Shown: piece after piece, positions 56,324 to 59,161 of the stretch | Position numbering within the stretch: the first letter of the stretch is position 1 | Layout of the letters: every line of letters begins with the position of its first letter | Source: Mesorhizobium onobrychidis | Lineage (GTDB): Bacteria; Pseudomonadota; Alphaproteobacteria; Rhizobiales; Rhizobiaceae | Length of the DNA: 64,000 nucleotides | Direction of reading: 5' to 3' | NCBI RefSeq assembly: GCF_024707545.1 | Contig: NZ_CP062229.1 | Span: 5,127,501 to 5,191,500 of the forward strand | The notes under the pieces: generated by a model | Told to the model about the DNA's origin: nothing | Database searches by the model: none | What the model saw: the letters and a program-made list of their open reading frames with translations, nothing else | Position numbers and translations under genes: made by a program

Positions 56324-56516
56324 GATCCTGCTCCCCATAGCGCACCAGACTGGTCGGAAGGTCTCGCAGGATTGCGGTGGTTCCGTGGCGCCTCACACGG
56401 GCTGTTCACACGGTGGTGCCTTTCGGCAGCTCGTTGCCCTGTGGTCGGCCTCCTTGGCGTGACGGGCGAAATACTGCTCACGCCACAGGCGATCACGAAG
56501 TCGTGTTCCAAAAAAT

Positions 56517-56542
56517 GTAACGCAGGGAACCTCCGGACCGAA
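56517..56542 (+). promoter_or_regulatory. ECF-sigma promoter of the bufferin operon
   Basis: GTAACG at 56517-56522, 16-base spacer, CGAA at 56539-56542. It closely follows the GTAAC-N16-CGAA form reported for SigF-type ECF promoters in Caulobacter, which drive copper/peroxide-linked genes. It lies 57 bases before the precursor ATG, in the expected position and orientation. Confidence 0.6.
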
Positions 56543-56599
56543 CTGACCAATGCGCGCTTGAGGAGCAGCGCGCGCAACAACCCAATCGGAGGTGAAATC

Positions 56600-56923
56600 A
56601 TGTCAACAAGATCAACCGTGAGCGCGGCCTTTCTGGCCGGCGCCGTTGCCACGGCTCTTGCTTCTTTTGCGACGGCCGCGCCGCTGTCCGAGGCAGAGGT
56701 CAAGGCGGCGATGGATGCCGGTAAGGAGAAGTGCTTTGGCGTCGCCCTGAAGGGGCAGAACGACTGCGCGGCAGGACCTGGCACCACCTGCCAAGGCACC
56801 TCGACTGTCGATTACCAGGGCAACGCCTGGAAATTTGTCGACGGCGGCACCTGCACGACGATGGACCTGCCCGGCGACCGCAAGGGCTCGCCCACGGAGC
56901 TGACCCGCGACATCCCATCGTAA
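56600..56923 (+). CDS. bufA: DUF2282 bufferin-type RiPP precursor
   Basis: A 107-residue precursor. A signal peptide (FLAGAVATALASFATAAPLS) is followed by EAEVKAAMDAGKEKCFGVAL and KGQNDCAAGPGTTCQGTSTV, then a GGTCTTM end. This is the DUF2282 pattern. Cysteines are at 45, 56, 64 and 85. In bufferins, MNIO enzymes convert such cysteines to 5-thiooxazoles, and the exported product binds copper. CGGAGGTG precedes the ATG. It is first in the operon, followed by the DUF692 enzyme 33 bases later. Confidence 0.85.
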   Translation: MSTRSTVSAAFLAGAVATALASFATAAPLSEAEVKAAMDAGKEKCFGVALKGQNDCAAGPGTTCQGTSTVDYQGNAWKFVDGGTCTTMDLPGDRKGSPTELTRDIPS

Positions 56924-56956
56924 GCAATGCAACCTGCCCGGAAAGCGGAGATGAAG

Positions 56957-57874
56957 ATGAACGGACTGGCCCCAACATCCCGCGTGTCGAAGACCTCGCG
57001 CTTTCCGGCGCACCCGATCGCTGGCCTTGCCGGCACCAGTTTTAAGCATCAACATTTGCAGGGAATCATTGCCGGCGGCAGTAAGGACGGTTTCTTCGAG
57101 GTCCACGCCGAAAACTACATGGGCGCCGGCGGCCCGCCGCACGATGCGCTGACCAAGATCCGCCGCGACTATCCCGTTTCGCTGCACGGGGTGTGCATGT
57201 CGATCGGCGGACCGCGGCCGCTCGACAAAGTGCATCTCGGCCGTTTCAAGGCGCTCGTCGACCGCTATGAGCCTGCGCTCGTTTCCGAGCATCTCGCCTG
57301 GTCGACCCACGACACCACTTATTACAACGACCTGCTTCCGCTGCCCTATACGCCGGCAACGGTTTCGCGCGTGGCGGATCACATCGACGAAATGCAGGAG
57401 ACGATCGGCCGCCCGATACTGCTCGAGAATCCCTCGACCTACGTCCTTTTCGCGGAATCGACGATGAGCGAGACAGATTTCATCCGCGCGCTGGTGCGGC
57501 GTACCGGTTGCGGCCTGCTGCTCGACGTGAACAACATCTTCGTTTCGGCCACCAACCACGACTATTCAGCGCTTTCCCACCTCGCGGACTTCCCGGTCGA
57601 GCATGTCGGCGAAATCCATCTGGCCGGGCACGCCGAGCAGGAGGATGACGAGGGCGATCTGCTGCTCATCGACAGCCATGACGGCCCGGTCGCCGACGCG
57701 GTCTGGAAGCTTTTCGATGTCGTCATCGGCCGATGCGGGCCGCTCCCGACGCTGATCGAATGGGATAGCGACATTCCCGATTGGCCGGTGCTCAAGGCGG
57801 AGGCCGCCGCCGCCCAAGCCATCCTCGACCGTCATGCCGACAGCTTGTTCGGAAAAGCCCATGCCGCAGGATGA
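56957..57874 (+). CDS. bufB: DUF692/MNIO RiPP-modifying oxidase
   Basis: A 305-residue multinuclear non-haem iron oxidase. The TIM-barrel metal ligands are visible: FFEVHAENYMG (Glu, His, Glu/Asn), DYPVSLHGVCMSIGG, SEHLAWSTHDT, LLENPSTYVLF, LLLDVNNIFVSATNHD, GEIHLAGHAEQ and IDSHDGPVADAVW. MNIOs oxidise cysteines of their precursor to heterocycles. I chose ATG 56957 because GCGGAG then lies six bases upstream; ATG 56951 and 56927 are also in frame. Coupled to bufC by a 14-base overlap. Confidence 0.88.
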   Translation: MNGLAPTSRVSKTSRFPAHPIAGLAGTSFKHQHLQGIIAGGSKDGFFEVHAENYMGAGGPPHDALTKIRRDYPVSLHGVCMSIGGPRPLDKVHLGRFKALVDRYEPALVSEHLAWSTHDTTYYNDLLPLPYTPATVSRVADHIDEMQETIGRPILLENPSTYVLFAESTMSETDFIRALVRRTGCGLLLDVNNIFVSATNHDYSALSHLADFPVEHVGEIHLAGHAEQEDDEGDLLLIDSHDGPVADAVWKLFDVVIGRCGPLPTLIEWDSDIPDWPVLKAEAAAAQAILDRHADSLFGKAHAAG

Positions 57875-58661
57875 GCTCCAGTCGCGCGATCTCGGCCGCC
57901 GGTTCGACTATGCCGCGGCATTCAGCGCCGGTTTGCTCGATCCTGACCGAGCCCCGCCTGACGTTGTCTCGGGGCCGAACGGGAAGGCTACGATCAAGCG
58001 CTATGCCGTCTACCGCAACAACGTCACGGTCAGCCTGATCGATGCGCTGGCCGCCAGCTTTCCGGCGACGCTGCGCATCACCGGCCCGGACTTCTTTCGC
58101 GCGATGGCGCGCTTTCATGTTCGCGAAACACCGCCCACCTCGCCGCTTCTATTCGAATACGGCCGCGACTTTCCCGATTTTATCGAACGTTACGAATACG
58201 CGCAGTCGATGCCGTGGCTGGCCGACGTAGCGCGCATGGAGCGGGCCTGGCTCGATGCTTATCATGCCGCCGACGCGGAACCGTTGGCTTCCGGAGCACT
58301 GGCCTCGATCCCGCCCGAACAACTGGCCGATACCGTGTTTGTGTCGCACCCGGCAACGCGCGCCATTCGCTCGCGCTATCCGGTCGTGACGATCTTTGCG
58401 GCCAACCGGAGCGAAGGTCCTGTCGGGCGAATCGAGGCGGGCGGCCCTGAAGATGCGCTGGTCACGCGGCCCGGCCTCGAGGTCTTTGTTCGCCACCTGC
58501 CGCCCGGCGGCGCGGTTTTCCTGGACCGTCTCATGGCGGGCGAGCCGCTCGGCGCGGCCGCCGCGGCAGCATTTGCGGAGCATGCCGAATTCGACCTTGC
58601 GGCCAACATTGCCGGCCTGCTGCAAGCAGGCGCCTTCACGGCGGCACATCAGGGAGGGTGA
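57861..58661 (+). CDS. bufC: DUF2063 RiPP partner protein
   Basis: A 266-residue protein of the DUF2063 (HvfC/BufC) family. The N-terminal domain has YAAAFSAGLLDPDRAPPDVV, KRYAVYRNNVTVSLIDALAA and FPATLRITGPDFFRAMARFH. The second domain holds EPLASGALASIPPEQLADTV. It is thought to recruit the precursor to the MNIO enzyme, as RiPP partner proteins do. Start MPQDELQ at 57861, inside the end of bufB. It ends four bases before the DoxX ATG start, so three proteins share one transcript. Confidence 0.87.
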   Translation: MPQDELQSRDLGRRFDYAAAFSAGLLDPDRAPPDVVSGPNGKATIKRYAVYRNNVTVSLIDALAASFPATLRITGPDFFRAMARFHVRETPPTSPLLFEYGRDFPDFIERYEYAQSMPWLADVARMERAWLDAYHAADAEPLASGALASIPPEQLADTVFVSHPATRAIRSRYPVVTIFAANRSEGPVGRIEAGGPEDALVTRPGLEVFVRHLPPGGAVFLDRLMAGEPLGAAAAAAFAEHAEFDLAANIAGLLQAGAFTAAHQGG

Positions 58662-58663
58662 GC

Positions 58664-59161
58664 ATGACCAACCATGAGCGGAACGTCAGCACCGGGCCGC
58701 GAGGGATCGCTGCCCTCGCCGAGAGGGTGAATGCCGCGCTGCGCACGGGTGCCACACCGTCGCTGACGCAGCTTGTCCTGCGCTGCGCGCTCGCCGTCCC
58801 GTTCTGGCGGTCCGGCGTCAACAAATGGGACGGTTTTTTGCAGTTGAACGAGGTCGCCGTGCTGCTTTTCAGTTCGGAGCTCAAGCTGCATCTGCCCGGC
58901 GGCCCTTACGATTTTCCCGCACCTGGGCTTGTGGCGTTCGTCTCAGGATCTGCGGAAATCCTGCTGCCAATTCTCCTTGTTCTCGGCCTGGCGACACGGC
59001 TGGCGGCATTCGGCCTGCTCGTAATGACGCTGGTCATACAACTCACCGTGCCCGACGGCTGGCCGCTGCACATCACCTGGGCGGCGATGGCGCTCGGCAT
59101 CATGGCGTGGGGACCCGGCCGGATTGCGCTCGATCACTGGATCGGCACTGACAAGGGCTGA
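58664..59161 (+). CDS. DoxX family protein of the bufferin operon
   Basis: A 165-residue inner-membrane protein. After a soluble N-terminus it has QLVLRCALAVPFWRSGVNKW, then four helices: FPAPGLVAFVSGSAEILLPI, LVLGLATRLAAFGLLVMTLV and a final ITWAAMALGIMAWGPG. DoxX genes close many bufABC operons; a redox or metal-handling role is likely but not shown. GGGAGG lies six bases before ATG 58664 and overlaps the bufC stop. It is more divergent from the two DoxX copies at 5.5-6.5 kb than they are from each other. Confidence 0.85.
   Translation: MTNHERNVSTGPRGIAALAERVNAALRTGATPSLTQLVLRCALAVPFWRSGVNKWDGFLQLNEVAVLLFSSELKLHLPGGPYDFPAPGLVAFVSGSAEILLPILLVLGLATRLAAFGLLVMTLVIQLTVPDGWPLHITWAAMALGIMAWGPGRIALDHWIGTDKG

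What the first reader, a model, noticed from the sequence alone, without database searches (positions are those of the whole stretch)
56500..59161. Four-gene bufferin-type RiPP operon with its own ECF promoter
A DUF2282 precursor with four cysteines, a DUF692/MNIO oxidase, a DUF2063 partner and a DoxX protein lie in one tightly coupled operon. GTAACG-N16-CGAA lies 57 bases upstream. Bufferins are a recently described class whose cysteines become copper-binding 5-thiooxazoles. Here the cysteines are at 45, 56, 64 and 85 in KCFGVAL, NDCAAGP, TTCQGT and GTCTTM contexts, so the exact modified set may differ from the Caulobacter type. Gene content is seen; chemistry and copper role follow from family knowledge.
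Basis: partly seen in the sequence, partly recalled or inferred. Interest (0 to 1): 0.8.

Follow-up and report, generated by a model that had tools for sequence, protein, structure and literature searches.

The report
Copper-buffering peptide operon in Mesorhizobium
A set of four genes in a root-nodule bacterium very probably makes a small modified peptide that soaks up excess copper; the set is a standard member of a recently described family, but its switch region also carries a conserved mirror-image DNA site that hints at a second, unidentified regulator.

Summary
Window 56600-59161 holds bufA (DUF2282, four Cys), bufB (MNIO), bufC (DUF2063) and a DoxX gene in one tight operon behind TGTAAC-N17-CGAA: a canonical Buf1-type bufferin operon. 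The four cysteines are the family's conserved four, so a different modified set has no support. The closest studied relative, Sinorhizobium meliloti SMb20530-SMb20527 (BufA 84% identical), is already reported as the RpoE7 (ECF16) regulon with the same promoter. The same promoter precedes a signal-bearing msrB in 30 of 30 genus loci held. New here: an inverted repeat, TCACGAAnTCGTG(T/A), centred 17-20 nt before the -35 element in 54 of 65 motif-bearing upstreams of close bufA relatives, absent at those 30 msrB promoters. It is missing in six Burkholderiales and in four of six more distant alphaproteobacterial genomes examined, and precedes three sigma genes. I read it as an operator for an unknown second regulator. 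Chemistry and copper role are inferred from the family.

The parts
56493..56506 (+). inverted repeat TCACGAAGTCGTGT, putative operator, centred about 17.5 nt before GTAAC
   Evidence: perfect TCAC-N6-GTG[AT] in 54 of 65 distinct motif-bearing bufA upstreams of the set; function inferred
56516..56521 (+). -35 element TGTAAC of the ECF16-type promoter
   Evidence: (GTAAC and CGAA, nine bases, invariant in the window and 6 Mesorhizobium orthologues)
56539..56542 (+). -10 element CGAA (17 nt after GTAAC)
56588..56593 (+). ribosome-binding-site-like GGAGGT
   Evidence: sequence
56600..56923 (+). bufA, Buf1/DUF2282 bufferin precursor, 107 aa, Cys 45/56/64/85; N-terminus looks like a Sec signal peptide (by eye)
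56927..57874 (+). bufB, MNIO-family maturase, 315 aa (ATG at 56927 as listed; later in-frame ATGs possible)
57861..58661 (+). bufC, DUF2063 partner protein, 266 aa, overlaps bufB
   Evidence: (scanned as 57834-58661)
58664..59161 (+). DoxX-family membrane protein, 165 aa
55556..56338 (-). divergent neighbour with YscW and META domains (context, not part of the operon)
   Evidence: beside the operon in 5 of 6 Mesorhizobium relatives
59208..59705 (-). moaE, downstream convergent neighbour (context)

Best explanation
This is a Buf1-type bufferin operon. An ECF16 sigma factor, held by an NrsF-type membrane anti-sigma factor encoded 3.6 Mb away, is released under periplasmic metal or oxidant stress and transcribes bufA-bufB-bufC-doxX from TGTAAC-N17-CGAA. 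BufB with BufC converts the two central cysteines of BufA (C56, C64) to thiooxazoles; BufA is exported by Sec, C45 and C85 form a disulphide, and the peptide sequesters excess copper in the periplasm. Expression is probably adjusted by a second regulator that binds the inverted repeat just upstream of the -35 element. Shown here: gene content, the conserved promoter, the sigma/anti-sigma genes and their promoter, the conserved inverted repeat. Inferred from studied relatives: modification, export, disulphide, copper binding, sigma-promoter recognition. Inferred from sequence alone: the second regulator.
For: Families. MNIO residues H87, H122, E167, N168, D200, N203, H231, D249, H251 and E278 are invariant in 15 of 15 aligned sequences, window included, and the aligned DUF692 structure 3bww has the same letters there; that these include the metal ligands is recalled, not tested. 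Four Cys invariant in 16 of 16, window included. BufA 84% identical to the S. meliloti BL225C orthologue, whose bufA promoter is letter for letter the one printed for SMb20530, a main RpoE7 target (PMC6180224, table passage and section 9). One NrsF gene in the genome, 173.8 bits vs cut-off 26.8, a sigma gene just before it and GTAAC-N17-CGAAT just upstream of that, the only match in the genome; sigma 56% and anti-sigma 51% identical to the S. meliloti linked pair, with two Cys shared. Promoter in 66 of 84 bufA upstreams. In Caulobacter the SigF regulon, with two such operons, is copper-induced and a sigF mutant is copper-sensitive (PMC8224329, passages).
Against: No chemistry or expression data in this organism. 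BufC and DoxX score below the NCBIfam HvfC and HvfX cut-offs (44.3 vs 142; 59.4 vs 80), and NrsF below the NCBIfam AntiSigF_NrsF cut-off (118.1 vs 300). RpoE7 of S. meliloti did not respond to H2O2, Cd or chromate in reporter tests (PMC6180224, section 9; copper is not among the stresses named there). 18 of the 84 upstreams lack a perfect motif, and so do the type A buf operons of 18 genus genomes. For the second regulator: in Caulobacter CC3254 (bufA) is said to be solely regulated by SigF (PMC3511200, passage); I have not seen whether the repeat is there.
Confidence: 0.85

Rival explanations
1. The operon serves mainly oxidant (hypochlorite, methionine- or thiol-oxidation) defence and copper binding is secondary, because it shares its sigma factor with methionine sulfoxide reductases.
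For: The same promoter precedes a signal-bearing msrB in 30 of 30 genus loci held and, in this genome and two relatives (3 of 30 loci), an MXKDX-like methionine-rich peptide plus msrA. ECF16 regulons in Brucella (PMC8315932, sections 7 and 10) and Bradyrhizobium (PMC3420878, passages) hold methionine-rich peptides and/or Msr enzymes.
Against: The Caulobacter SigF regulon combines MsrPQ and buf operons and its loss gives copper sensitivity (PMC8224329, passages). Bufferins are reported to chelate copper (PMC12452194, section 4).
Confidence: 0.2
2. The inverted repeat upstream of the -35 element is not an operator for a second regulator but a lineage-bound conserved block, or part of how some ECF16 promoters work.
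For: No binding protein is known. Within Mesorhizobium the whole promoter-proximal region is similar. Promoters of the same kind work without it: six Burkholderiales loci, and four of six more distant alphaproteobacterial genomes with a perfect motif (G023, G027, G061, G093) lack it even at two mismatches, a fifth (G065) has it 7 nt off position. It also precedes three sigma genes (L047, L053, L055). CC3254 is reported as solely SigF-regulated (PMC3511200, passage).
Against: In the set, over at least 11 alphaproteobacterial genera, the arms stay while the centre and the DNA up to the -35 element vary; 54 of 65 perfect at a nearly fixed distance; no other perfect hit in 13,780 bases of the same upstreams; shuffles mean 0.085, maximum 1; 0 of 30 msrB promoters.
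Confidence: 0.3
3. The operon is read from another promoter by the housekeeping sigma factor and the ECF motif is chance.
For: GTAAC-N17-CGAA occurs 18 times in the genome, below its reversed control of 57.
Against: Conservation across genera at a nearly constant distance; S. meliloti and Caulobacter data for the same promoter type (PMC6180224, PMC3511200).
Confidence: 0.04

Closest known systems
Sinorhizobium meliloti SMb20530-SMb20527 with rpoE7-ecfR7 (pSymB)
   Same: Same four genes in the same order, BufA 84% identical, same promoter geometry, ECF16 sigma; the inverted repeat is also there (TCACGAAAGCGTGT in L100).
   Different: There the sigma/anti-sigma pair is adjacent and divergent; here it is 3.6 Mb away. 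A term search of PMC6180224 for palindrom, inverted repeat and TCACG gave nothing.
Caulobacter SigF-NrsF regulon: CC3254-3257 and CC2907-2905 (bufferin operons), CC2748 (YedY/MsrP)
   Same: DUF2282-DUF692-DUF2063-DoxX order in CC3254-3257; promoter GTAACC-N16-CGAA (PMC3511200, passages), which is GTAAC-N17-CGAA.
   Different: Two buf operons plus MsrPQ there; here one buf operon with msrB and MXKDX-msrA, and none of the four PF00174 loci has a perfect motif in the stretch held.
Buf1 bufferins (PMC12452194)
   Same: DUF2282 precursor with four Cys, MNIO, DUF2063 partner, DoxX; sigma and NrsF genes are reported in Buf1 clusters.
   Different: Nothing defining that I tested; sigma unlinked here.
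Bradyrhizobium EcfF-OsrA and Brucella BcrS-AbcS (ECF16)
   Same: NrsF-family anti-sigma, promoter class, Msr and/or methionine-rich peptide targets.
   Different: By the names printed, the target lists I saw hold no bufferin operon; several targets are unnamed hypothetical proteins.

Membership tests
Buf1 bufferin | DUF2282 precursor with the four conserved Cys | tested here: met
   PF10048 80.7 bits vs 22.4; four Cys invariant in 16 of 16
Buf1 bufferin | Sec signal peptide on the precursor | tested here: inconclusive
   N-terminus MSTRSTVSAAFLAGAVATALASFATAAP looks like one by eye; no predictor was run
Buf1 bufferin | MNIO (BufB) maturase | tested here: met
   NF050167 371.9 vs cut-off 310
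Buf1 bufferin | DUF2063 partner | tested here: met
   PF09836 85 vs 27.2 bits
Buf1 bufferin | RRE domain on the partner protein | not tested
Buf1 bufferin | thiooxazoles and copper binding | not testable with these tools
   needs mass spectrometry and metal assays
Buf2 bufferin | BufA2 equivalog, six Cys | tested here: not met
   NF050166 22.1 vs cut-off 60; four Cys
ECF16 sigma regulon | promoter (T/C)GTAAC-N17-CGAA | tested here: met
   TGTAAC-N17-CGAA at 56516-56542; consensus quoted in PMC8315932, section 7
ECF16 sigma regulon | NrsF-family (DUF1109) anti-sigma beside an ECF sigma gene, two conserved Cys | tested here: met
   PF06532 173.8 vs 26.8; sigma gene upstream; C129 and C179 align with Cys of the S. 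meliloti pair; below the NCBIfam NrsF equivalog cut-off
ECF16 sigma regulon | transcription of this operon by that sigma | not testable with these tools
   expression experiment needed

The most novel reading that the evidence does not exclude
Bufferin operons of the BufB clade to which the window belongs (Mesorhizobium, Sinorhizobium, Bradyrhizobium, Devosia and others) are under dual control: besides the ECF16 promoter they carry an operator, TCACGAAnTCGTG(T/A), about 50 bp upstream of the transcription start, bound by a so far unidentified regulator (perhaps copper-responsive) that separates bufferin expression from the methionine-repair branch of the same sigma regulon.
Probability: 0.5. 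Interest if true: 0.55.

Novelty: new member of a known kind. Interest (0 to 1): 0.42.

Why it matters
The operon extends a known copper-buffering peptide family to Mesorhizobium; named carriers of the orthologous operon include M. metallidurans, M. prunaredense and M. ventifaucium. The useful part is regulatory: one resident ECF16 sigma factor appears to serve both methionine-sulfoxide repair and, where it is present, a bufferin operon; and a conserved inverted repeat marks most bufferin promoters of one large alphaproteobacterial clade. If it is an operator, it gives a direct handle for finding the missing regulator and for asking whether copper, oxidants or both switch bufferins on.

Tried and rejected
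Different cysteine set than Caulobacter: rejected. Sigma factor linked to the operon: no; the genome's one NrsF gene is 3.6 Mb away. A second MNIO or DUF2282 gene in the genome: none found. MsrP as a co-target, as in Caulobacter: none of the four PF00174 loci had a perfect motif in the stretch held. TGTAAC-N16-CGAA as the search pattern was a base short and missed the operon; corrected. msrA promoter as a genus-wide target: rejected, 3 of 30 loci held. The inverted repeat as a universal mark of ECF16-driven bufA: rejected; see the misses. A regulator gene that travels with the operon: recurrent flanking ORFs were clustered but not annotated, so none was identified. Solved structures related to BufC or BufA by sequence: none. 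Co-occurrence of the sigma pair with the operon inside the genus is uninformative: NrsF in 58 of 61 genus genomes, DUF2282 in 24 of 61, all 24 with NrsF (counted by me, whose own tallies are for 101 genomes). Gain and loss of linkage on the BufB tree: 11 changes, 6 forced; two rows from the first locus set (L080, L088) were labelled unlinked by my script although one search shows a sigma gene beside them, so I make no claim from it.
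Full report
WHAT IS THERE. The window carries bufA (56600-56923), bufB (56927-57874), bufC (57861-58661) and a DoxX gene (58664-59161) on the + strand with gaps of 3 nt, -14 nt and 2 nt. All four pass the Pfam cut-offs for DUF2282, MbnB_TglH_ChrH, DUF2063 and DoxX. BufB passes the NCBIfam cut-off for the bufferin maturase; BufC and DoxX match the HvfC and HvfX models below cut-off, and BufA matches BufA2 weakly, below cut-off. The genome has one MNIO match and one DUF2282 match. 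The window lies at C1:5127501-5191500 of a 7.55 Mb genome. I take its genus to be Mesorhizobium: three same-genus genomes hold the orthologous operon on contigs of 87,859, 9,234 and 146,421 bases, the same lengths as named M. prunaredense, M. metallidurans and Mesorhizobium MAG contigs that hold it.

THE CYSTEINES. C45, C56, C64 and C85 are invariant in 16 of 16 aligned precursors, the window included; the other 15 are 35-97% identical to it. PMC12452194 (section 14, read) states that Buf1 precursors carry the founding member's four Cys, that the central ones are modified and that the first and last form a disulphide. By homology the modified pair is C56 and C64. A different set has no support.

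THE PROMOTER AND ITS SIGMA FACTOR. TGTAAC-N17-CGAA lies at 56516-56542. In 84 bufA upstreams (the window, the genomes and the four plasmid records; some are near-duplicates) a perfect GTAAC-N16-18-CGAA was found in 66 and missing in 18; shuffles gave mean 0.16 and maximum 3, the reversed pattern 0. The opposite strand gave 15, 13 of them in loci with a linked sigma or NrsF gene. In the window and six Mesorhizobium orthologues all nine -35/-10 bases are invariant, against 59% of spacer and 30% of other positions. The genome's only NrsF match is at C1:1538105-1538689. An ECF sigma gene precedes it, and GTAAC-N17-CGAAT, which has one match in the genome, ends about 20 nt before the sigma start. 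In the first locus set 28 of 40 sigma-gene upstreams (duplicate loci included) have a perfect N17 motif. The pair is 56% and 51% identical to the S. meliloti linked pair; NCBIfam scores this NrsF below its equivalog cut-off. Among 61 genus genomes, 58 have NrsF and 24 have DUF2282, all 24 with NrsF (counted). So the sigma factor is resident and the operon accessory.

OTHER BUF OPERONS IN THE GENUS. Of those 24 genomes, five (G000, G016, G020, G040, G052) have the window type. In the four relatives the META-domain gene and ndk flank it as in the window; moaE follows at once in G020 and G040, about 2 kb later on the G052 contig, and was not found in the 2.4 kb held in G016. Two (G023, G027) have a type with a linked sigma gene. 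Eighteen have a more distant type A with no ECF16 motif, even at one mismatch, in 260 nt upstream; G016 has both the window type and type A.

THE REST OF THE REGULON. Of 18 GTAAC-N17-CGAA sites in the genome, besides the buf and sigma operons two lie before genes for methionine repair: an MXKDX-like methionine-rich peptide (34.8 bits, cut-off 41) followed by msrA, and a signal-bearing msrB. The msrB promoter is present in 30 of 30 genus loci held (51 of 61 genomes searched had a match), the msrA one in 3 of 30 held. Most other sites lie inside open frames and are probably chance; a few (L190, L195, L196) were not resolved. This agrees with ECF16 regulons of Bradyrhizobium (PMC3420878, passages) and Brucella (PMC8315932, sections 7 and 10) and with the copper-induced Caulobacter SigF regulon, which joins buf operons and MsrPQ (PMC8224329 and PMC3511200, passages).

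THE INVERTED REPEAT. Aligning the Mesorhizobium promoters showed a second conserved block, TCACGAAGTCGTGT (56493-56506), just before the -35 element. In 65 distinct motif-bearing bufA upstreams of the set, a perfect TCAC-N6-GTG[AT] starting 14-32 nt before GTAAC is present in 54, and in 59 with one mismatch; the six without are all Burkholderiales (L176, L178-L182). The centre is 17-20 nt before GTAAC (mode 18). The same upstreams held no other perfect hit in 13,780 bases; shuffles gave mean 0.085, maximum 1. The pattern was chosen after looking at these upstreams, so this is not a blind test. Weighted by genus, the arms are fixed while the centre and the DNA up to the -35 element vary.

RESULTS AGAINST, OR LIMITING, THE REPEAT. 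In the first locus set, leaving out the four window-type loci, six alphaproteobacterial genomes have a bufA upstream with a perfect motif: G064 has the repeat in place, G065 has it centred at -11 instead of -18, and G023, G027, G061 and G093 lack it (best match three mismatches). Of the 18 upstreams without a perfect promoter, six still hold a perfect TCAC-N6-GTG[AT]. It is absent at 30 of 30 msrB upstreams and present in 3 of 40 sigma-gene upstreams. In all DNA held (1.52 Mb, overlapping loci counted more than once) the stricter TCACG-N4-CGTG[AT] gave 100 strand-wise hits, 66 followed by an ECF16-like promoter. These are 68 distinct locus positions: 60 lie within 300 nt upstream of a bufA match, four are the window's own site seen again in other own-genome loci, three precede sigma genes (L047, L053, L055) and one is in L110, apparently coding. 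In Caulobacter, CC3254 is said to be solely regulated by SigF (PMC3511200, passage).

IN PRINT? Term searches for palindrom, inverted repeat and the like within PMC3511200, PMC6180224, PMC8224329, PMC12452194 and PMC3420878 found no such element; the one 'inverted repeat' passage, in PMC3420878, concerns another gene. The full-text searches (15 of 5,244 papers listed; 8 listed of 9) showed no title or abstract that describes it. The founding bufferin paper did not appear in the listings and was not seen.

HOW IT MOST LIKELY WORKS. As in Best explanation. Shown: genes, promoter, sigma pair, repeat. From named relatives: copper induction, modification, disulphide, export. Inferred: the second regulator, and that C56/C64 are the modified residues here. 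With a start a few nt after CGAA the repeat would be centred near -50 (inferred).

LIMITS. No expression, chemistry or binding data. Genus loci are near relatives, so their conservation counts for less than the cross-genus counts. The rest of the genome was not scanned for the repeat.

Noticed in passing
G000 C1:679665-680903 (L202): An MXKDX-like methionine-rich signal-bearing peptide gene followed by msrA, behind GTAAC-N17-CGAA in this genome and two close relatives only (3 of 30 loci); most other relatives keep the peptide and msrA without the motif.
   Followed up: partly
G000 C1:491042-491759 (L201): A signal-bearing msrB behind an ECF16 promoter present in 30 of 30 genus loci held; the gene upstream looks fasciclin-like by eye.
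   Followed up: partly
L017, L018, L020-L025, L027-L033, L037, L041, L082-L087, L092-L094: A second, distant kind of buf operon (type A; the two BufB aligned are 47% identical to the window's) occurs in 18 genus genomes without the ECF16 promoter; its regulation is unknown.
   Followed up: no
L165, L166, L171, L173: Oricola, Nitratireductor and a Phyllobacteriaceae MAG have bufA upstreams without the perfect ECF16 motif but with TCAC-N6-GTGA repeats of different centres.
   Followed up: no
L047:851, L053:845, L055:2759: In three genomes (G094; G042 and G051 of the same genus) the same inverted repeat lies upstream of the ECF16 sigma gene rather than of a bufA match.
   Followed up: no
window 55556-56338: A divergent gene with YscW and META domains sits beside the operon in 5 of 6 Mesorhizobium relatives; whether it shares regulation is unknown.
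   Followed up: no
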